From contig JABMNT010000132.1 in assembly GCA_013203595.1 (NCBI GenBank), positions 1 through 64,000 of the forward strand: a stretch of DNA of 64,000 nucleotides, written 5' to 3'. The position numbers and the translations under genes were made by a program. Shown here one piece after another: positions 4,318 to 14,190 of the stretch. The DNA is from Rhodospirillales bacterium (GTDB taxonomy: Bacteria; Pseudomonadota; Alphaproteobacteria; Rhodospirillales; Casp-alpha2). Positions within the stretch are counted from its first letter, which is position 1. The number at the start of each line of letters is the position of its first letter. The notes beneath the pieces are model-generated. The model saw only the letters and a program-made list of their open reading frames with translations, had not been told where the DNA came from and searched no databases.

Positions 4318-4663
4318 AAGTTAGTGCTCTTGAGGGAAGGGATGGATTTCAATCTTGAAATCCTTCCAACCCCTGCATTGTGCCGGATCTGCGGTGCTGC
4401 CGCTGTGACCGGCATCACATAGCGACAAAAATAATTCACCTCGAATTTTATATAATAATATCAAGGTGCTATCAGGAAAAACCGTCCCCACGCCCGATCA
4501 ATTCGACGGGCCTGACGGAAGTTGCGGAAAATCAGGCGGCAATTGACCCAGATCAAGGCGCCATCCCCTGTATGGCAATAACTTACCGTCAGCAGTTCCG
4601 AGTACGGCTGTACGAACACGAGGGATGTACCCATCGATAACTTTTCGCACAATGGAGCAGAAA
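4318..4663 (+). promoter_or_regulatory. nirK upstream control region
   Basis: A gene-free stretch in front of nirK. It contains the FNR-type box listed separately and an AT-rich patch with a TATAAT hexamer at 4451-4456 that lacks a clear -35 partner. A GGAG ribosome site lies at 4654-4657, six bases before the nirK ATG. Confidence 0.5.
4543..4556 (+). promoter_or_regulatory. FNR/Dnr/NnrR-type operator upstream of nirK
   Basis: TTGACCCAGATCAA is an imperfect dyad of the form TTGAC-N4-ATCAA, a good match to the CRP/FNR-family half-sites (TTGAT-N4-ATCAA). It lies about 107 bp before the nirK start. Regulators of this family (FNR, FixK, Dnr, NnrR) commonly control nirK by oxygen or NO; which one acts here is not visible in the window. 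Confidence 0.65.
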
Positions 4664-5830
4664 ATGAACAAGACAGTTAAAAATCTAGAGAACGCATCGA
4701 GGAGGAATTTTCTTTCCGCTACAGCCGCTGTCGGCGCCGGATTTGTCGTTACCGAGGTCGCATCCTCGGCAGCCAAGGCCGCAACCCCTCAAACAGCAGC
4801 GCCCGTTTCCGCAAAAACGGAAAAAGAGATCGCAGCACTGCCACGTATCAAGCAGGAGTTGGTGGCTCCGCCATTTATGCCCAAGCATGACCAGGTCGCC
4901 AAGGGTGGCCCGAAAGTCGTTGAAATACGCTTGGTTATCAAAGAGAAGATAATGGTTCTCGATGACGAAGGCGCTGAGATCTGGGCCTTGACCTTCAACG
5001 GTTCCGTACCCGGACCGATGATTGTCGTGCACCAGGATGACTATGTGGAACTGACCCTGGTCAACCCGGACACCAACGCCATGGAGCATAACATCGACTT
5101 CCATGCCTCAACCGGAGCGCTGGGTGGTGGCGGGCTTACCCATGTATCGCCGGGCGAAGAATGTGTATTGCGTTTCAAGGCAACCAAAGCCGGGGTTTTT
5201 GTCTATCACTGTGCCCCTGGCGGGGTCATGATTCCCTATCATGTGGTCCATGGCATGAACGGTGCCATCATGGTATTGCCACGCGATGGCCTCAAGGACA
5301 AAGCCGGACAGCCGATTACCTATGACCGGGCCTATTACATCGGCGAGCAGGATTACTATCTGGCCAAGGATGAAGACGGCGAATACATCAAATACGAGAC
5401 CGCTGGCGAAGACTATGCGGATTCACTGCAAGTCATGGCCACACTGACCCCGAGCCATATTGTTTTCAATGGTGCCGTCGGGGCGCTGACCGGCGACAAT
5501 GCCTTGCTCGCCAACGTTGGCGAGACGGTGTTGATGATCCATTCACAAGCCAACCGCGATACCCGTCCCCACCTGATCGGTGGACACGGCGACTATGTCT
5601 GGTCGACGGGTTCCTTTACCGACGATCCGCAAACCGGGCTGGAAACCTGGTTCATCGCCGGTGGCGCAGCCGGTGCAGCGACCTATACCTTCAAGCAGCC
5701 CGGGCTCTATGCCTACGTGAACCATAACCTGATCGAAGCCGTGCTCAAGGGCGCTGCGGCCCACTTTAAGGTTGAAGGCAAATGGGACAACGACCTGATG
5801 ATGCAGGTCAAAAAACCCACAGCCATTTAG
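4664..5830 (+). CDS. nirK: copper-containing nitrite reductase
   Basis: A periplasmic enzyme reducing nitrite to nitric oxide. The 388-residue protein starts at ATG 4664 (GGAG six bases upstream) and opens with a twin-arginine signal ([10 protein letters not shown], residues 12-21). Two cupredoxin domains follow. The copper and catalytic residues are visible: H142, D145 and H147 in EHNIDFH; H182/C183, H193 and M198 in the YHCAPGG...[10 protein letters not shown] segment (type 1 copper plus one type 2 ligand); H265 in [10 protein letters not shown]; and the [10 protein letters not shown] segment that supplies the last type 2 histidine. Length is normal. It leads the cluster, under an FNR-type box, and is followed by a cytochrome c and nirV. 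Confidence 0.95.
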
Positions 5831-5844
5831 TCCTTTTCAACTGC

Positions 5845-5887
5845 ATGCCCTGCCGGGAATCCCGTAACCAACGATCCGGCAGGGCAT
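5845..5887 (+). repeat. 12-bp perfect inverted repeat between nirK and cytochrome c gene
   Basis: ATGCCCTGCCGG at 5845-5856 pairs perfectly with CCGGCAGGGCAT at 5876-5887 across a 19-base loop. There is no strong T-run after it, so it is either a weak attenuator or an mRNA-stabilising/processing hairpin that lets nirK transcript accumulate above the downstream genes. Confidence 0.55.
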
Positions 5888-5905
5888 TAAAATCAGGAGA
5901 GTACC

Positions 5906-6619
5906 GTGAAACTTAAATATTTGATATCGACCTGTATCGGCAGCGTCATGTTTGTGTCCGCAGCCGGGGCGATCGCTGCCGGTGATGCGGCCAGCGGTGA
6001 GAAACTGGCCAAAAAATGCGCGGCTTGCCACACCATGGACGAAGGCGGAAAAAACCGTTTGGGCCCCAATCTCTTCAATATTCTGGACAAGCCGGCTGGG
6101 GCCGTTGAGGGTTACAAGTATTCCTCGGCCATGAAGGAATCCGGAATCACCTGGGATGCGGCAACCTTTCAGGACTTCATCGCGAAGCCCAAAAAAGTTG
6201 TAAAAGGAACGAAGATGAGTTTCTCCGGCCTGAAAACGGCGGCGCAGCGGGCTGATCTGCTGGCTTATTTTCAGACTTTACGCAGCTCAACCGCTGAAAT
6301 CGAGAGCCATGGCAACGCTGAAGACGGCAAGGTCGTTGCCCAAAAGCATTGCATTGTCTGCCATAGTTTCGAGAAAGGCGGCAAGACTGTGTATGGACCG
6401 AACCTGTTTGACATGGCCGGAAAGCCGGCTGCAGCCATCGCCGGTTATGACTATTCGGACGCGCTGAAAACGTCCGGACTGACCTGGACGGATAAGAACC
6501 TGATCGGGTTTTTAGCTGATCCCGAACAGTTCCTGAAGGGCACAAAGGCGCGCTTTCCCGGCTTGAAATCGGCCCAGGACAAGGCCGACATTCTGGCCTA
6601 TATGAAGACCCTGAAATAA
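5906..6619 (+). CDS. di-heme cytochrome c with two c2-like domains
   Basis: A secreted 237-residue protein starting with GTG at 5906 after an AGGAGA site. A Sec signal covers about residues 1-25. Domain 1 has heme site CAACH (C38-H42) and a canonical axial methionine in KGTKMSF (M104). Domain 2 has CIVCH (C149-H153), but the corresponding segment reads KGTKARF, so the axial methionine is replaced by alanine (A215). It probably carries electrons to NirK and/or the CuA subunit downstream. The two halves are clearly homologous, an internal duplication. Confidence 0.9.
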   Translation: MKLKYLISTCIGSVMFVSAAGAIAAGDAASGEKLAKKCAACHTMDEGGKNRLGPNLFNILDKPAGAVEGYKYSSAMKESGITWDAATFQDFIAKPKKVVKGTKMSFSGLKTAAQRADLLAYFQTLRSSTAEIESHGNAEDGKVVAQKHCIVCHSFEKGGKTVYGPNLFDMAGKPAAAIAGYDYSDALKTSGLTWTDKNLIGFLADPEQFLKGTKARFPGLKSAQDKADILAYMKTLK

Positions 6620-6639
6620 GCGGGGGCAGGGAGCTCGCG

Positions 6640-7473
6640 ATGCGGCTTCAGCGCGTCCTGATCAGCATTTCATTGCTCGGATTAATCGCCGTCGGTCTGG
6701 TTTACACTCTAAAAACCAGAACCGACGGTTCGCCGGTTCCGCCGCTGGCCGGTTTGCACATGATCCCGGTTGCTTCCGGTCACTATGATCTGACCATTCT
6801 GGTCCCCGATTCCTTTGGCCGGACATACCATTCAAAGCCGGTGACAATCGCGCAGCCCTTTCATATCAGCCAGCACGAAATCACCATCGATCAATGGAAT
6901 AGCTGTTATGCCGGAGGCGGCTGCCCCGAAGAGGCAAAACAACGCCCCTATCAGACCGGCAACCATCCGGTCACCCGCATTTCCTGGTACGACGCAATGC
7001 TGTTTACCCAATGGCTGTCGGCAAAAACCGGCGACAGCTATCGGCTGCCGACCGAGGAGGAATGGGCCTTTGCGGCGATGGCCGGCAAGGATTTCACCCG
7101 GCAAACGATTGATGGCCTGATTGAACAACGCCAGATGATCCAGACCGCATCAATGAGCCGGTTCCGCCAAACCCTGCCTGTCGGCAGTAATGGCCAGAAC
7201 GACTGGGCAATTGCCGATATGACGGGATCTGTCTGGGAATGGACTCTGACCTGCTGGTTCTCGTCCGATGAGGAAAACCAGCGACCGTGGTCGATTGCCC
7301 AGCTGAGCGACCCGGATCTGTGTCCGAACCGGATCGTCCAGGGCGACGAACGGGCCCATGTGCCGTTTTTTATCGATAAAGTCTATACCGGTGGATGTGG
7401 CACCGGCAGTCCCGTTGATCATATCGGTTTCCGTGTGGTCCGGGGCGAGGACACATTGTCCACGCCCGGCTGA
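6640..7473 (+). CDS. nirV: NirV-like formylglycine-generating-enzyme-family protein
   Basis: A 277-residue protein with an N-terminal membrane anchor or signal (residues about 6-25) and an FGE/SUMF1-type sulfatase-modifying fold: ISQHEITIDQWN, HPVTRISWYDA, YRLPTEEEWAFAA, GSVWEWT and the terminal GFRVV signature. A member of this family called NirV accompanies nirK in several denitrifiers, so the position after nirK and a cytochrome c supports the name. Its function is not settled; a role in nitrite reductase maturation is only presumed. The cysteine pattern of true FGE catalysis is not obvious. Confidence 0.8.
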   Translation: MRLQRVLISISLLGLIAVGLVYTLKTRTDGSPVPPLAGLHMIPVASGHYDLTILVPDSFGRTYHSKPVTIAQPFHISQHEITIDQWNSCYAGGGCPEEAKQRPYQTGNHPVTRISWYDAMLFTQWLSAKTGDSYRLPTEEEWAFAAMAGKDFTRQTIDGLIEQRQMIQTASMSRFRQTLPVGSNGQNDWAIADMTGSVWEWTLTCWFSSDEENQRPWSIAQLSDPDLCPNRIVQGDERAHVPFFIDKVYTGGCGTGSPVDHIGFRVVRGEDTLSTPG

Positions 7474-7593: not shown

Positions 7594-7788
7594 ATGTCAG
7601 ATACACCACTGGATCAACCGCATACGCAGCCAAAACAGGCAACGGATGATGAGTTGGATCCAATACCGTTTATGCAGCAACTTTTAGACAATCCGTTTTT
7701 GCTTTTATTCCTGGGAGTTACCTTTCCCACGGTTTTTTACATTATCTGGGGGATCATCGAAATTACGTCGATCCCCTTAGCTAACTGA
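7594..7788 (+). CDS. small single-helix membrane protein, probable accessory subunit
   Basis: A 64-residue protein starting at ATG 7594 after a strong AGGAGGAG site. The N-terminal half is polar and acidic (about residues 1-28); one hydrophobic helix follows (LLLFLGVTFPTVFYIIWGII). It sits 10 bp before the subunit II gene. B-family (ba3-type) oxidases have a one-helix subunit IIa encoded in this place, so an equivalent role in the heme-copper complex is likely but unproven. No homologue is recognised by sequence. Confidence 0.7.
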   Translation: MSDTPLDQPHTQPKQATDDELDPIPFMQQLLDNPFLLLFLGVTFPTVFYIIWGIIEITSIPLAN

Positions 7789-8352: not shown

Positions 8353-10050
8353 ATGATTAATACAACAAATTACCGAACTTGCCCCGACACCGGGTTCAAG
8401 ATCGACCTAAGCGCCGATAAACTGATTAAATGGAATGCCGTGAGCGGCGTCGTCTTTTTGCTCATCGGCGGTCTGTTCGGGCTGGGTGTGGCCCTGACCC
8501 GCTGGCCAGCCGTGCATCTGCTGCCTGCCGACTGGTTCTATCTGGCCCTGACCGCACATGGCTTTGATGTCCTGCTGGTTTGGATCATCTTCTTCGAGGT
8601 TGCTGTGCTCTATTTTGCCGGTGCCGTTCTGCTGGGTTCCCGGCTGGCCGCCCCGAAAGTTGCATGGCTGGCCTACTGGATGATGCTGGGCGGTGCCATC
8701 ATCACCAACATTGCCGTCCTGCGCGGTGATTCAACAGTGATGTTTACCTCCTATGTGCCCATGAAAGCGGCACCGGAGTTTTACTTAGGAATCATCATCT
8801 TTGCCGTCGGCGTACTACTCGCCTGTATTGTGTTCTTCGGCACCCTGGTCATCGCCAAACAGGACAAGACCTACACCGGCTCGGTGCCGCTGGTGGTGTT
8901 CGGTGCCACCGTCGCCGCCATTATTGCCGTGTTCACCATTGCCGCAGGCGCGATCATTCTGATCCCGACCCTGTTATGGTCGGTTGGCTATGTGGGTCAC
9001 ATCGACACCCTCATGTACAAGATTGTCTGGTGGGCAATGGGCCACTCCTCGCAGCAGGTCAACGTTGTTGTCCAGATTTCCCTCTGGTATGCCCTGGCAG
9101 CCATTCTGTTCGGGGCCAAGCCGCTGTCGGAAAAAGTCAGCCGCACGGCATTCCTGCTCTATATCCTGTTCCTGCAACTGGCCAGTGTGCACCACTTGCT
9201 GGTCGAGCCGGGGCTAAGCTCCGAATACAAAATCTTCAACACCAGCTACGCGCTTTATCTGGCCGTGCTGGGCAGCATGATCCACGGCCTGACGGTTCCG
9301 GGCGCGGTTGAGGCGGCCCAGCGTAAGAAAGGCTACAACAAGGGCCTGTTCGAATGGTTACGCAAGGCGCCCTGGGGCAATCCGGCGTTTTCCGGTTTCG
9401 CCCTGTCCGTGGTCCTGTTCGGTTTCCTGGGCGGTATTACCGGTGTCATGATGGGGGCCGAGCAGCTCAACATCATCATCCACAACACGCTCTATGTACC
9501 AGGCCACTTCCATGGCACCGTGGTTGTTGGCACCACCCTGGCGTTCATGGCCTTTTCCTACTGGTTCGTTCCCGTACTGTGGCAGAAGGAACTGGTGATG
9601 CCGGGTATTGCCAAATGGCAACCCTACCTGTTCGGTATCGGCATGGGGCTGGTTTCGGTGTTCATGATGGGGGCAGGGACCCTGGGCGTTCCCCGCCGCC
9701 ACTGGGACATCAACTTTTCCGACGCGGCGATGGCCTATGAGTTCCCGGGTGCTGCACATTTGATGATGGGCCTGAACGGCATGGCGGCACTGGTCGGTGG
9801 CCTTGGCGCAGCCATCTTCATCCTCAATATGGTTGGCACCATTCTGTGGGGCAAACCGAAAACAAAGGCGGCGCCAGCGGCCGAGCCGTCAACCGATACC
9901 CACGGTGCCCAGGTATTGGCGAGCCACGGTTCAGCCGAAGGCATGTCTGTTCCCGGCACCTTCACCCTGGCCATGGTCTTCCTCGTTGCCTTCGTTCTCT
10001 ACTACTTTGTCAACTGGAAGTATCTGGCCGGTGTATGGCCACTGAGTTAA
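8353..10050 (+). CDS. B-family heme-copper oxidoreductase subunit I, probable NO reductase
   Basis: A 565-residue polytopic membrane protein; ATG 8353 chosen because earlier codons overlap subunit II. Ligands: H69 and H387 (low-spin heme), H385 (high-spin heme), H231, H280 and H281 (CuB). The HHLLVEPG segment resembles the HH-x3-DPG of ba3-type enzymes, placing it in the B family. The residue four after H231, where oxygen reductases have the cross-linked tyrosine, is glutamine (Q235, in GHSSQQV). Loss of that tyrosine characterises B-family-derived NO reductases (sNOR, eNOR and relatives). With nirK, nirV and hemerythrin adjacent, NO reduction to N2O is the favoured role; an atypical oxygen reductase is the alternative. 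Confidence 0.8.
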   Translation: MINTTNYRTCPDTGFKIDLSADKLIKWNAVSGVVFLLIGGLFGLGVALTRWPAVHLLPADWFYLALTAHGFDVLLVWIIFFEVAVLYFAGAVLLGSRLAAPKVAWLAYWMMLGGAIITNIAVLRGDSTVMFTSYVPMKAAPEFYLGIIIFAVGVLLACIVFFGTLVIAKQDKTYTGSVPLVVFGATVAAIIAVFTIAAGAIILIPTLLWSVGYVGHIDTLMYKIVWWAMGHSSQQVNVVVQISLWYALAAILFGAKPLSEKVSRTAFLLYILFLQLASVHHLLVEPGLSSEYKIFNTSYALYLAVLGSMIHGLTVPGAVEAAQRKKGYNKGLFEWLRKAPWGNPAFSGFALSVVLFGFLGGITGVMMGAEQLNIIIHNTLYVPGHFHGTVVVGTTLAFMAFSYWFVPVLWQKELVMPGIAKWQPYLFGIGMGLVSVFMMGAGTLGVPRRHWDINFSDAAMAYEFPGAAHLMMGLNGMAALVGGLGAAIFILNMVGTILWGKPKTKAAPAAEPSTDTHGAQVLASHGSAEGMSVPGTFTLAMVFLVAFVLYYFVNWKYLAGVWPLS

Positions 10051-10141
10051 GCGTTCAGGGCGGCGGTGGATGCCGCCGCCCCGAATACCTTCGCTCCACA
10101 CGGCCATCGGCCCAACAAGACAGGATCGGACAGACAAAATC

Positions 10142-11008
10142 ATGAAAGCCCAGTGCGCCTTGTTTTACAGCGTTTTCAAAATCCGGATTGGCCTGGCGAT
10201 CATGGCCAGTGCGCTGGTCGGGAGCGCTGTCATGCCCGGTCCTGCCTTAACCGGCTGGCAGCTTTTAATCCTGGCCCTGACCGTACTTGGATCGTCGGCT
10301 GCGGCAGGTGCCTTCAACCAGCTAGTTGAACGCGATCTGGATGGGCGCATGAAACGCACCGCAAACCGGCCTTTCGTTACCGGACGGCTTCGCGCCGGGC
10401 CCGGTTGGTATATAATCATTCTGTCTTTGCTGGTGGTTTCCGTTGGAACCGCCTTTTTTGCCCTGAACGGAGCCAGTGCGCTCTATGTATTTCTGGGGGC
10501 CTTCTTCTATGGCGTTGTCTATACGGTCTGGCTGAAGCGCCGGACGGTCTGGAACATCGTCATTGGCGGGCTATCGGGAAGTTTTGCCGTGCTGGCCGGT
10601 GCCGCCGCGGTCGATCCGGGCCTGTCGGCGACCGCTCTCGGCCTGGCCGTGATTTTGTTCCTGTGGACGCCACCGCATTTCTGGAGCCTGGCCGCGGTCC
10701 TGCGCGACGATTACGCGCAAGCCGGAATCCCCATGCTGCCGGCGATAATCGACGAACGGGCCGCAGCCTGGACCATATTGATCAACACCGTCGGGCTGGT
10801 TATCGCATCGATGATGCTGACCATGTACGGATTGGGCTGGTCCTACTGGCTGATGGCGGCAACAGGCGGCAGCTATTTTCTCTATCGCAGTGTTCAGTAT
10901 GTGATGGCGCCATCACCGGAAACCGCCATGAAAAACTTCTTCGCCTCGCTGGTGCAGCTTTGCCTTTTATTTATCGGTGTTTTCCTGGGAGCCATGACAG
11001 GCCTATGA
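10142..11008 (+). CDS. ctaB: protoheme IX farnesyltransferase (heme O synthase), UbiA family
   Basis: A 288-residue protein with about eight or nine hydrophobic helices. The polyprenyl-binding motif is N59-x3-E-R-D-L-D with MKRTANRP after it; the second conserved loop (YTVWLKRRTVWNIVIGG) and the WTPPHFW motif are family hallmarks. It farnesylates heme B to heme O for heme-copper enzymes. ATG 10142 is chosen over an upstream in-frame start because homology begins there. It overlaps the next gene by ATGA. Its presence implies that the neighbouring reductase uses heme O or A, unlike classical NorB, which uses only heme b. Confidence 0.85.
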   Translation: MKAQCALFYSVFKIRIGLAIMASALVGSAVMPGPALTGWQLLILALTVLGSSAAAGAFNQLVERDLDGRMKRTANRPFVTGRLRAGPGWYIIILSLLVVSVGTAFFALNGASALYVFLGAFFYGVVYTVWLKRRTVWNIVIGGLSGSFAVLAGAAAVDPGLSATALGLAVILFLWTPPHFWSLAAVLRDDYAQAGIPMLPAIIDERAAAWTILINTVGLVIASMMLTMYGLGWSYWLMAATGGSYFLYRSVQYVMAPSPETAMKNFFASLVQLCLLFIGVFLGAMTGL

Positions 11009-11889
11009 GACCGGCATTTCGGCGCATATTCGGGGTACTCGGTCTGTGTGGACTCTGGGTTTACGCGCTTCCGTCAGCCGGCGCCGAAAGCCCGACCGCA
11101 GCCTTTCAGGAAGCCTCGGCCCTGGCAACCAGCCAGTCCGCTATCGGCAAACGCATCCCCGACCTGAGCTTTCGCGACGGCCGCGGCGGCACCGTCCGGC
11201 TATCCGATTATCTGGGCAAGCCGCTGGTTCTGAATTTTATCTATACCGGCTGCGTGCAGAGCTGCAACGTCAATACGGCGTGGCTGGTTGAGGTTTTCGA
11301 CACGGCGAAGGAAGCCCTGGGCAATGACAGCTTCACCGCCCTGACCATCGGTTTCGACACCGTGCATGACTCGCCCGGACGAATGCAGGACTTTGCCAGC
11401 CAGCGGCGCGCCGATGAAATACCCGGTTGGCATTTCCTCAGTGGTGATGCCGACAGCGTCGGGCAGTTGACGCAAGTGGCCGGCTTCACCTATTTCAAGT
11501 CGGCCAAGGGCTTCGATCACCTGGACCAGGTAACTCTGATCGACGGCAACGGGGTTATTCAGGCCCAGGTATACGGCGAGCTGTTTGCAAAACCGACCTT
11601 GATTGATCCCCTCAAAGCCCTGGTTTTCGGCACGACAACACCGTATCGGAGCCTTGACGACCTGATCAAGAAAGTCCGCCTGTTCTGTATCCTCTATGAC
11701 CCGGCGACGGAACGTTATAAGTTCAATTATGCGCTTTTCATCCAACTTGGAGTAGGGGCCTTGTTTATTGGCGCTGTCCTGGTTTTTTTGGGACGCGACC
11801 AATTACAACAATACCGTCGCCGCCGCCTGGCAAAACGGTTGCCGGCCGCCAGTGAGCAACCGCAGGCAAGGCATAACGACGCCGTTTGA
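11005..11889 (+). CDS. Sco1/SenC-family copper chaperone
   Basis: A 294-residue protein with an N-terminal signal/anchor, a thioredoxin-like domain with the copper-binding C83-x3-C87 (YTGCVQSC) and the distal histidine H172 (FDHLDQV), then a C-terminal transmembrane helix (about residues 236-258) and a basic tail. Sco proteins deliver copper to CuA. It is translationally coupled to ctaB (ATGA) and fits the CuA subunit upstream. A senC gene also accompanies norSY in ammonia oxidisers as I recall, which strengthens the NO-reductase reading. The frame stays open upstream within ctaB, but that part is shadow. Confidence 0.85.
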   Translation: MRPAFRRIFGVLGLCGLWVYALPSAGAESPTAAFQEASALATSQSAIGKRIPDLSFRDGRGGTVRLSDYLGKPLVLNFIYTGCVQSCNVNTAWLVEVFDTAKEALGNDSFTALTIGFDTVHDSPGRMQDFASQRRADEIPGWHFLSGDADSVGQLTQVAGFTYFKSAKGFDHLDQVTLIDGNGVIQAQVYGELFAKPTLIDPLKALVFGTTTPYRSLDDLIKKVRLFCILYDPATERYKFNYALFIQLGVGALFIGAVLVFLGRDQLQQYRRRRLAKRLPAASEQPQARHNDAV

Positions 11890-11911: not shown

Positions 11912-13474
11912 ATGCTGAACGCGATCCACTATCCCATTCGACGCCTTTTCGAAGGCCTTGAATCCGTCTTTGACGGCCCCTTCGGCCCGGCCTGGAATCC
12001 GATCCGGCAACTGGGAACATTGGCCTTCTTCTTCTTTTGGATTGCTGCCGTCAGCGGCATCTATCTGTTCATTTTTTTCGATACCAGCCTGTCCGGTGCC
12101 TATGACTCCATTGCTTATCTGACCCGGGAGCAATGGTATCTGGGCGGCATCATGCGCAGCCTGCATCGCTACTCATCCGATGCCATGGTCGCCTGCATGA
12201 TATTACATTGTCTGCGCGAATTTTCCATGGACCGCTATCGGGGCGCGCGCTGGTTCACCTGGTTTACCGGCGTTCCCCTGATCTGGCTGCTGCTTATATC
12301 AGGGATCAGCGGCTACTGGCTGGTGTGGGATGAACTCGCCCAGTATGTGGCCATCGGCTCCATGGAATGGCTCGACTGGCTTGGAATTTTCGGGCAATCG
12401 GTGGCCGAGAACTTTCTGACACGCGGCAGCCTTGATGACCGCTTCTTCAGCCTGCTCGTGTTTATGCACATTTTCGCACCGCTTTTTCTGCTGTTTGTGA
12501 TGTGGGTCCATATCCTGCGGGTCAGCCGGGCAAAAACAAATCCACCGCGCGGCTTGGCGATCGGCAGTTTTCTGATGCTGCTGGCTCTGTCCATCGCTGT
12601 GCCGGCCGTCAGCCATGCCCCCGCAGACCTGGGGCGCGTACCGGCGACGCTCAATCCCGACTGGTTTTTCATGGCCCTGTATCCGCTTTACGATCTGGCC
12701 GGCGCCGGGCCGCTCTGGGCGCTTGGTTTTGGCGGCTCGCTGCTGCTTTGTGTGCTGCCCTGGCTGCCACCGCTGAAGCGGGCAAAAGCCCCGGTGGTTT
12801 TTCTCGACCAATGCAATGGCTGTACCCGGTGTTTCGAGGATTGTCCCTACAGCGCGATCACCATGCAGGCGCGCACCGATGGCCGGCCCTTCGAGATGGA
12901 GGCGGTGGTCAATGCGGATCTGTGTACGGCCTGTGGGATCTGCGTCGGATCCTGTCCGATGTCGACACCGTTCCGCCGCGGCGCGGCGCTCGAAACCGGG
13001 ATTGATCTGCCGGGCCTTTCCCTCGACACCGTGCACAAGAAAATCAACGCGGCGATCACCGAGGCCAAGTCCAGTGCCGGCGACCGCCCCAGCCTGCTGG
13101 TTGTCGGCTGCGACCACGGCGTGCCTGTGGGCGGCTATGGTGGCCACGGCATGGCCCCCGTATCCTTGCCCTGCATCGGCATGCTGCCGCCGTCGTTCCT
13201 GGATTACGCGTTGTCCGGAGACCGGGTTGATGGGGTGATGTTGACCGGTTGCGCACAATGCGACTGTCATCACCGGCTTGGCATCCAATGGACCGAAGAG
13301 CGGCTGACCGGCATGCGCGACCCCTATCTGCGCAAACGCGTTCCCCGGGACCGCCTCGATGTGTATTGGGCCGCAGCCAATGAAAGCGCCGCACTGGGCC
13401 AGGAGATCGATCATTTCAGGGAGCGGCTGGAGCAGCAGAAACAATCCGCCGATGGCGAGAAGCAATCAACATGA
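11912..13474 (+). CDS. cytochrome b - 2[4Fe-4S] ferredoxin - MvhD-like fusion protein
   Basis: A 520-residue protein with three parts. Residues 1-290 are a bc-complex-type cytochrome b with heme ligand pairs H85/H99 and H186/H200 (both H-x13-H) and a PDWF motif (249-252) equivalent to the PEWY quinol-site motif of cytochrome b/subunit IV. Residues 300-350 carry two [4Fe-4S] motifs (C301, C304, C307, C311; C338, C341, C344, C348). Residues 395-480 resemble MvhD/FrhD hydrogenase delta subunits (C400, C421 in LPCIGM, C447, C450, C452). It probably links the quinone pool to iron-sulfur carriers. No Rieske protein or cytochrome c1 gene is nearby. It overlaps the next gene by 4 bp. The architecture is unusual and its direction of electron flow is unknown. 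Confidence 0.8.
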   Translation: MLNAIHYPIRRLFEGLESVFDGPFGPAWNPIRQLGTLAFFFFWIAAVSGIYLFIFFDTSLSGAYDSIAYLTREQWYLGGIMRSLHRYSSDAMVACMILHCLREFSMDRYRGARWFTWFTGVPLIWLLLISGISGYWLVWDELAQYVAIGSMEWLDWLGIFGQSVAENFLTRGSLDDRFFSLLVFMHIFAPLFLLFVMWVHILRVSRAKTNPPRGLAIGSFLMLLALSIAVPAVSHAPADLGRVPATLNPDWFFMALYPLYDLAGAGPLWALGFGGSLLLCVLPWLPPLKRAKAPVVFLDQCNGCTRCFEDCPYSAITMQARTDGRPFEMEAVVNADLCTACGICVGSCPMSTPFRRGAALETGIDLPGLSLDTVHKKINAAITEAKSSAGDRPSLLVVGCDHGVPVGGYGGHGMAPVSLPCIGMLPPSFLDYALSGDRVDGVMLTGCAQCDCHHRLGIQWTEERLTGMRDPYLRKRVPRDRLDVYWAAANESAALGQEIDHFRERLEQQKQSADGEKQST

Positions 13475-14190
13475 ACAGCCCTGATAACGTTTATTTTTTT
13501 ATTGTTCCGGTGCTCATATTCGGCCCCCTTTTCCTGTGGATCCTGTATAACTTCGGAATCAAGGAACTGGTTAAAATACCGGGCGAGCTGCGCCGCAAGC
13601 GGAGCCGCGAGGCGGCGCAGGCGGCGGCCTTTGAGGCGGAGCGCCAGCGCAAGCGGGGCACCGGGGCGGTCTGGCTGGTACGCGGACCGAACACAAGCCT
13701 TTTCGGGGTATTCATGCAGGGCCTGACCTTCGCCTGGTTTGCCGGCAGCATCGGTTTCTTTGCCTCGTCACTGGCCTATGAATACAGAAGCCCGGACATG
13801 GCCCTGATCAAGCTCAGCCTCAACCATGCCGGCCAACGCAAAGTCGAATGCACAACCCGGAGCGCCAAGGAACTGGCCAAACTGGAACCCAATATGCGGG
13901 CCAAACTGTCATGCCCGCGCGAACGCTGGCCCGTGCATGTGGAACTTGAACTCGATAGCCGGGTCCTTTTCAAGGAAAGCGCCAAGCCGGCCGGGCTCTC
14001 CACCGACGGCCCCTCCAGCTTTTATAAGTCCTTTGTCGTGCCGGCTGGCCAGCACCAGCTGACGCTGCGTCTGCGCGACCGCGGCGATACCGGCTTCGGT
14101 TTCGAGGCGACACAGCAACTCACCATCGCGCCGCGCCAGGTGATCGCTGCTCAGTTCAACGCCGCCAGGGGCGGTTTTATTATCCGGTAG
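13471..14190 (+). CDS. unknown two-helix membrane protein of the nitrogen-oxide cluster
   Basis: A 239-residue protein overlapping the fusion gene by ATGA, so translationally coupled to it. Hydrophobic helix 1 spans about residues 8-28; a highly basic, coiled-coil-like stretch follows (about 40-62, rich in R, K, E and A); helix 2 is at about 74-97; the rest is a soluble beta-rich domain with two cysteines. I do not recognise a family. Coupling to the cytochrome b fusion suggests an assembly or partner subunit. Confidence 0.75.
   Translation: MNSPDNVYFFIVPVLIFGPLFLWILYNFGIKELVKIPGELRRKRSREAAQAAAFEAERQRKRGTGAVWLVRGPNTSLFGVFMQGLTFAWFAGSIGFFASSLAYEYRSPDMALIKLSLNHAGQRKVECTTRSAKELAKLEPNMRAKLSCPRERWPVHVELELDSRVLFKESAKPAGLSTDGPSSFYKSFVVPAGQHQLTLRLRDRGDTGFGFEATQQLTIAPRQVIAAQFNAARGGFIIR

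What the first reader, a model, noticed from the sequence alone, without database searches (positions are those of the whole stretch)
11912..13474. Cytochrome b fused to a 2[4Fe-4S] ferredoxin and an MvhD-like domain
One polypeptide carries a bis-heme, bc-type cytochrome b with a PDWF quinol-site motif, eight ferredoxin cysteines and a C-terminal domain like the MvhD subunit of methyl-viologen hydrogenase/Hdr complexes. MvhD normally feeds heterodisulfide reductase, which is absent here. This could be a new quinone-to-iron-sulfur (or reverse) conduit, perhaps bifurcating, devoted to the NO reductase.
Basis: partly seen in the sequence, partly recalled or inferred. Interest (0 to 1): 0.85.

Follow-up and report, generated by a model that had tools for sequence, protein, structure and literature searches.

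The report
Cytochrome b wired to NO reductase
A real and widely conserved bacterial membrane protein, seen in nearly every sampled proteobacterium that has a particular type of nitric oxide reductase and almost nowhere else, appears to carry electrons from inside the cell across the membrane for that enzyme; a sister form with an NAD(P)H-reductase tail shows the likely direction of flow.

Summary
Window 11912-13474 is one intact 520-aa ORF: bis-heme cytochrome b, 2[4Fe-4S] ferredoxin, MvhD/FlpD domain. In 36 aligned homologues all four heme His, eight ferredoxin Cys and four MvhD Cys are invariant; of 'PDWF' only D-W is conserved. It is no frameshift or assembly artefact. The gene lies in SU2-SU1-(CtaB)-SCO-CYTB-P239 operons. 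SU1 is an eNOR (Gln replaces the active-site Tyr); SU2 keeps CuA. CYTB and eNOR nearly always co-occur in Pseudomonadota: 34 and 30 of 399 genomes, 29 shared, even where unlinked. Key result: in one order a sister CYTB carries a MmoC/BenC-like 2Fe-2S/FAD/NAD(P)H reductase instead of ferredoxin-MvhD, beside the MvhD form or replacing it; eNOR is present in 16/16 such genomes, 0/26 controls. The tail is best read as an electron-input arm: cytoplasmic donor to heme bH, bL, periplasmic face. This disfavours quinol-to-Fe-S flow or bifurcation. The acceptor (eNOR, its copper-loading machinery, or quinone) is unproven. I found no description in the open papers searched; Murali et al. (2024) was not held.

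The parts
11912..13474 (+). CYTB: 520-aa cytochrome b / 2[4Fe-4S] ferredoxin / MvhD fusion
11912..12787 (+). Cytochrome b domain (residues 1-292), 6 predicted TM helices
   Evidence: Pfam Cytochrome_B; AF2 model and Foldseek to bc1 cyt b; loop charges
12164..12208 (+). Heme ligands H85 (bL-type) and H99 (bH-type), helix B
   Evidence: invariant in 36 and 95 sequences; bL/bH assignment by homology
12467..12511 (+). Heme ligands H186 and H200, helix D
   Evidence: invariant in 36 and 95 sequences
12659..12664 (+). D250-W251, the remnant of the PEWY ef-loop (Qo-type) motif, periplasmic side
   Evidence: invariant in 95 of 95 sequences; preceding P not conserved
12812..12955 (+). Two CxxCxxCxxxC motifs (C301-C311, C338-C348), 2[4Fe-4S] ferredoxin
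   Evidence: Pfam Fer4 models; all eight Cys invariant
13094..13441 (+). MvhD/FlpD domain with invariant C400, C421, C447, C452 (probable [2Fe-2S])
   Evidence: Pfam FlpD; alignment to MvhD chains of 9sw2 and 5odc
13471..14190 (+). P239: membrane-anchored periplasmic beta-sandwich partner, invariant C127, C148, H195; its ATG overlaps the CYTB stop
   Evidence: found downstream of CYTB in all 46 loci; A2; AF2 pLDDT 89; no Pfam hit
11005..11889 (+). SCO/SenC-type protein with CxxxC (copper delivery)
   Evidence: Pfam SCO1-SenC; sequence; upstream of CYTB in all 46 loci
10070..11008 (+). CtaB heme O synthase (present in part of the clusters)
   Evidence: TIGR01473 above cut-off
8353..10050 (+). 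SU1: eNOR-type heme-copper subunit I (GHSSQQV: Gln at the active-site Tyr position)
   Evidence: sequence; COX1 Pfam; eNOR criterion in PMC8756737
7799..8341 (+). SU2: subunit II with complete CuA motif CNEFCGIGHHTM
   Evidence: sequence; compared with Thermus, Thermomicrobium and Defluviimonas
7594..7788 (+). 64-aa single-TM protein, probable subunit IIa of B-family enzymes
   Evidence: similar small ORFs upstream of SU2 in three annotated plasmids; subunit IIa described in PMC3128077
14200..14622 (+). Bacteriohemerythrin-like protein, frequent neighbour

Best explanation
CYTB and P239 form a membrane module dedicated to the proteobacterial eNOR nitric oxide reductase. A cytoplasmic flavoprotein (not identified here) passes electrons to the MvhD [2Fe-2S] cluster, then through two [4Fe-4S] clusters to heme bH and on to heme bL at the periplasmic face. 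There the conserved D140/D250-W251 region, with P239, hands them to an acceptor that serves eNOR, most simply eNOR itself (CuA or a docked carrier). It would thus be an electron-input arm that links cytoplasmic reductant to NO reduction beside the usual cytochrome c route. Shown: architecture, invariant cofactor ligands, operon, near-strict co-occurrence with eNOR, and exchange of the tail for an NAD(P)H reductase. Inferred: cofactor loading, direction of electron flow, the donor, and the final acceptor.
For: Domain and ligand conservation. Operon in all 46 loci (some contigs fetched twice): SCO upstream and P239 downstream of CYTB, eNOR subunit I in the 42 whose contig reaches that far. Phylogenetic profile: 399 genomes, CYTB 34, eNOR 30, both 29; 0/28 CYTB-less genomes of the window's order have this SU1; 16/16 versus 0/26 in the order of G460. 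The association persists where CYTB-P239 lies away from eNOR. CYTB and SU1 distance matrices correlate, Mantel r 0.87, 0 of 2000 permutations as high, partly shared ancestry. Tail exchange: cytochrome b fused to Fer2-FAD_binding_6-NAD_binding_1, full-length in 15 of 150 genomes. It stands without an MvhD-tailed copy in G509, a single-contig genome, and in G578; the MvhD form stands alone in G501; elsewhere both are often present. Across both tail types the heme ligands, D140 and D250-W251 are unchanged, so the donor end varies and the membrane and periplasmic end is constant. In Hdr complexes MvhD carries a [2Fe-2S] as connector next to the HdrA flavin (PMC12350162).
Against: eNOR subunit II keeps a full CuA site, and the eNOR clusters of Thermus and Thermomicrobium plasmids have no CYTB, so eNOR as such does not need this module. 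The genome has a canonical bc1 cytochrome b that could supply cytochrome c. No donor flavoprotein is encoded next to CYTB. No periplasmic acceptor is shown; P239 shows no cofactor motif. The tail exchange is probably a single ancient event, not repeated swapping.
Confidence: 0.5

Rival explanations
1. Maturation reductase: CYTB-P239 brings cytoplasmic electrons to the periplasm to reduce copper or the thiols of SCO while CuA/CuB of eNOR are assembled, working like CcoG/RdxA (cbb3 biogenesis) or like metalloreductases of the FRE/STEAP kind, and not in catalysis.
For: SCO with an intact CxxxC lies upstream of CYTB in all 46 loci; CtaB is often in the same operon; the eNOR clusters of Thermus and Thermomicrobium lack both SCO and CYTB. 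Strict dependence on eNOR fits a dedicated assembly factor. CcoG as a cupric reductase is from my own knowledge.
Against: In several genomes CYTB-P239 has moved away while SCO and CtaB stayed with eNOR. No CcoG/FixG or FixH Pfam match in CYTB or P239. Two differently wired CYTB forms side by side seem excessive for assembly.
Confidence: 0.27
2. Quinone reductase: electrons from the cytoplasm go through the b hemes to quinone at a Qo-like periplasmic pocket, and quinol then reaches eNOR through bc1 and cytochrome c.
For: bc-type cytochrome b with invariant D-W at the PEWY position and conserved cd-loop residues; bc1 cytochrome b is present in the genome.
Against: A generic quinone reductase would not be expected to track eNOR so strictly. 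The Gly of the bc1 Qo loop is Asp140 here, the Qi ligands are missing and the Pro of PEWY is lost.
Confidence: 0.15
3. One reading: quinol is oxidised at the PDWF site, and electrons flow to, or are bifurcated towards, the iron-sulfur domains in the cytoplasm, driven by NO reduction.
For: Qo-like D-W motif and bis-heme chain; NO/N2O is a very strong oxidant (own knowledge).
Against: No Rieske or other high-potential one-electron acceptor in the operon; sister proteins carry an NAD(P)H reductase at the same place. Electrons moving from periplasmic quinol to a low-potential cytoplasmic cluster go uphill in potential and against the membrane potential (own reasoning with textbook potentials).
Confidence: 0.05
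4. Frameshift, assembly error or chance ORF.
For: None found.
Against: Unbroken homologous ORFs in dozens of genomes, including a complete plasmid, with invariant ligands.
Confidence: 0.01

Closest known systems
Cytochrome b/b6 of bc1 and b6f complexes (PF00033)
   Same: Fold, four heme His, D-W at the PEWY position, six of the helices
   Different: No Rieske or c1/f in the operon, Qi ligands lost, Gly of the Qo loop replaced by Asp140, Pro of PEWY not conserved, cytoplasmic redox tail added
HdrA2 C-terminal arm (ferredoxin + MvhD)
   Same: The same domain order, aligned over about 200 residues to HdrA2 572-772
   Different: Joined to a membrane cytochrome b instead of the HdrA flavin domain; no other MvhD domain in the genome
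eNOR nitric oxide reductase (also called ba3-a1)
   Same: SU1 Gln at the Tyr position, cupredoxin SU2 with CuA, SCO in the operon
   Different: CYTB and P239 are extra genes, absent from the Thermus and Thermomicrobium eNOR clusters and not mentioned in the papers read
NADPH oxidase / ferric reductase / MsrQ-Fre type transmembrane reductases (own knowledge)
   Same: Cytoplasmic NAD(P)H-flavin input, b hemes, output on the outer side: a functional analogy to the NAD(P)H-reductase-tailed sister form
   Different: Unrelated membrane domain; no ferric-reductase Pfam match
CcoG/RdxA/FixG (own knowledge)
   Same: Membrane protein with 2[4Fe-4S] that serves a heme-copper enzyme
   Different: Different membrane fold, no Pfam match
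ExtP b-type cytochrome (NF040969)
   Same: Best NCBIfam match of the cytochrome b domain (101.7 bits)
   Different: Far below the family cut-off of 290 bits; no tail

Membership tests
bc-type cytochrome b | Cytochrome_B domain with four heme-ligating His | tested here: met
bc-type cytochrome b | PEWY quinol-site motif | tested here: inconclusive
   Only D-W invariant; P usually L, F, M or I; E replaced by D
bc-type cytochrome b | Qi-site residues corresponding to bovine H201 and S205 | tested here: not met
   Variable in this family, while the genome's own bc1 cytochrome b has H and S there
bc-type cytochrome b | Rieske and cytochrome c1/f partners in the operon | tested here: not met
   None among the ORFs around the gene or the conserved neighbours
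MvhD/FlpD | FlpD match above cut-off and conserved Cys | tested here: met
   49.9 bits against 22.3; four invariant Cys; alignment to solved MvhD
MvhD/FlpD | Hydrogenase or HdrABC partner in the cluster | tested here: not met
   None in the conserved cluster; only one FlpD domain in the genome
eNOR (for SU1/SU2) | Gln at the active-site Tyr position of subunit I | tested here: met
   GHSSQQV; criterion from PMC8756737
eNOR (for SU1/SU2) | Cupredoxin subunit II with CuA ligands | tested here: met
   CNEFCGIGHHTM plus upstream His
eNOR (for SU1/SU2) | NO reductase activity | not testable with these tools
   Needs biochemistry
CcoG/FixG cupric reductase | FixG/CcoG membrane and C-terminal domains | tested here: not met
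   No such Pfam match in CYTB or P239
NOX/FRE/MsrQ | Ferric-reductase-like transmembrane domain | tested here: not met
   No match in CYTB or in the NAD(P)H-reductase-tailed sister

The most novel reading that the evidence does not exclude
CYTB-P239 docks on eNOR and passes electrons from cytoplasmic NAD(P)H, ferredoxin or a flavoprotein through its b hemes straight into the NO reductase. NO reduction would then be driven independently of quinone and bc1, with an exchangeable donor arm (ferredoxin-MvhD or NAD(P)H reductase).
Probability: 0.28. Interest if true: 0.8.

Novelty: new variant of a known kind. Interest (0 to 1): 0.62.

Why it matters
eNOR enzymes make the greenhouse gas N2O and are usually annotated as oxygen reductases. 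In Pseudomonadota they come with a conserved cytochrome b module that the genomes and papers seen here do not name. If the module feeds eNOR from the cytoplasm, the electron budget and energy yield of these denitrifiers differ from the textbook cytochrome c route. If it serves assembly, it is a missing biogenesis factor needed to express proteobacterial eNOR. Either way the gene is a sharp marker for this enzyme, and the exchanged tails make the direction of flow testable.

Tried and rejected
Frameshift or assembly error: rejected. P239 as FixH, FixG or a cofactor carrier: no Pfam, PDB-sequence or convincing fold match. An HdrA-MvhD partner in the genome: none. Co-migration with one fixed donor gene where CYTB is unlinked: two loci (L103, L104) show cysteine-desulfurase/Fe-S assembly and serine acetyltransferase neighbours without an obvious donor. 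The apparent eNOR-without-CYTB case G168: its eNOR cluster runs to near the end of the contig right after SCO, so absence is uncertain. Non-proteobacterial genomes could not be sampled by the genome search. Literature: ten searches and about ten papers consulted gave no description of the fusion; Murali et al. (PNAS 2024) was not held, and the operon drawing in PMC6431628 Fig. 5 could not be seen.

Full report
Observation. The ORF at 11912-13474 encodes 520 aa without interruption. Pfam places Cytochrome_B at 31-204, Fer4-type domains at about 294-351 and FlpD/MvhD at 414-508, above curated cut-offs. NCBIfam matches residues 294-510 to the C-terminal part of HdrA2. AlphaFold with 36 homologues gives mean pLDDT 81, and its best solved matches are bc1 cytochromes b. 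The profile's best sequence matches in the PDB are cytochrome b6 for the membrane part, and MvhD chains are matched by the tail.

Conservation. Among 36 homologues (51-79% identity to the window protein) the four heme histidines, all eight ferredoxin cysteines and four MvhD-domain cysteines are invariant. Three of the last four align with MvhD cysteines in solved structures. The positions of the bc1 Qi ligands vary. By homology and loop charge the protein's tail is cytoplasmic, next to the N-side heme.

Neighbourhood. In 46 loci (some contigs fetched twice) CYTB is preceded by an SCO protein and followed by P239, and eNOR subunit I is present in the 42 whose contig reaches that far. P239 starts inside the CYTB stop codon (ATGA); it is a membrane-anchored periplasmic beta-sandwich with invariant C127, C148 and H195 and no convincing fold match. 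SU1 has Gln in place of the active-site Tyr (GHSSQQV), the stated hallmark of eNOR (PMC8756737). The same enzyme was called ba3-a1 and is reported as an NO reductase using cytochrome c (PMC8879329; PMC6431628). SU2 has a complete CuA motif. A 64-aa single-TM ORF at 7594-7788 resembles subunit IIa of B-family enzymes.

Phylogenetic profile. In 399 genomes of the phylum CYTB occurs in 34 and eNOR SU1 in 30, with 29 shared. The CYTB-only genomes are mostly incomplete, and in the one eNOR-only genome the cluster ends near a contig end after SCO. None of 28 CYTB-less genomes of the window's order has this SU1. In several genomes, mostly of one family (f75), CYTB-P239 is away from eNOR but both are present. 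CYTB and SU1 distance matrices correlate with r = 0.87, part of which reflects shared ancestry. Outside Pseudomonadota the eNOR clusters of Thermus and Thermomicrobium plasmids lack CYTB, P239 and SCO, so the module is an addition and not part of the minimal enzyme.

The tail exchange. In G460 a second cytochrome b of this family carries Fer2, FAD_binding_6 and NAD_binding_1 in place of ferredoxin-MvhD. The tail matches the MmoC and BenC reductases. Full-length relatives occur in 15 of 150 genomes of that order. They mostly lie with P239 and eNOR, usually beside an MvhD-tailed copy. In G509 and G578 only the NAD(P)H-reductase form was found, and in G501 only the MvhD form. All 16 genomes with either form have eNOR; none of 26 others from the order does. 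The two tail types separate in the tree, so one ancient exchange is enough. Heme ligands, Asp140 and Asp250-Trp251 are common to both. The periplasmic and membrane end is thus constant and the donor end is exchangeable. Because reductases of that kind take electrons from NAD(P)H, the tail is best read as input. In Hdr complexes MvhD's [2Fe-2S] is the connector next to a flavin (PMC12350162), so the MvhD-tailed form is predicted to dock on a separate flavoprotein. That donor is not identified.

Mechanism. Best explanation: cytoplasmic flavoprotein to [2Fe-2S] to 2[4Fe-4S] to heme bH to heme bL to a periplasmic acceptor serving eNOR. Cofactor occupancy, direction and acceptor are inferred. The main rival is a maturation role: reducing SCO or copper for CuA/CuB assembly. 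It is supported by the SCO neighbour and the joint absence of SCO and CYTB in Thermus and Thermomicrobium clusters, and weakened by clusters where SCO and CYTB separate. Quinone reduction at a Qo-like pocket is possible but does not explain the strict tie to eNOR. Quinol-driven or bifurcating flow to the clusters is disfavoured by the domain exchange, the absence of a Rieske-type partner and textbook energetics (own knowledge).

Novelty. I found no description of this fusion or of its NAD(P)H-reductase sister form in the open papers searched. The key eNOR paper (Murali et al. 2024) was not available, so prior notice cannot be excluded. All building blocks are known; the combination and its dedication to eNOR make it a new variant of a known kind.

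Noticed in passing
7594-7788 (+): Unlisted 64-aa single-TM ORF directly upstream of SU2, probable eNOR subunit IIa; similar small ORFs in Defluviimonas, Thermus and Thermomicrobium.
   Followed up: partly
L093:6127-7557, L183:12214-13641, L185:5043-6926, L194:9996-11438, L195:6685-8157: A second heme-copper subunit I-like protein (about 476 aa, His ligands apparently kept, Phe at the Tyr position) sits next to CYTB/P239 in many eNOR clusters of the G460 order; distant relatives near some other clusters (L094-L096, L160) and at G000:C202 in the window's genome. No NCBIfam match.
   Followed up: partly
L094, L095, L096, L097: Tandem duplicated CYTB genes in one family (f66), suggesting a heterodimer as in dimeric bc complexes.
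   Followed up: no
L143 (NZ_CP156080.1, Defluviimonas sp. SAOS-178_SWC): The whole eNOR-CYTB-P239-hemerythrin operon lies on a 165-kb plasmid; SU2 and P239 are annotated only as hypothetical proteins.
   Followed up: partly
4625-7473 (+): Cu-type nitrite reductase NirK, a c550-like cytochrome with two heme domains, and a SUMF1/FGE-domain protein (NirV-like) directly upstream of the eNOR operon.
   Followed up: no
L103, L104: Where CYTB-P239 is unlinked from eNOR it lies beside cysteine-desulfurase/Fe-S assembly and serine acetyltransferase genes.
   Followed up: no
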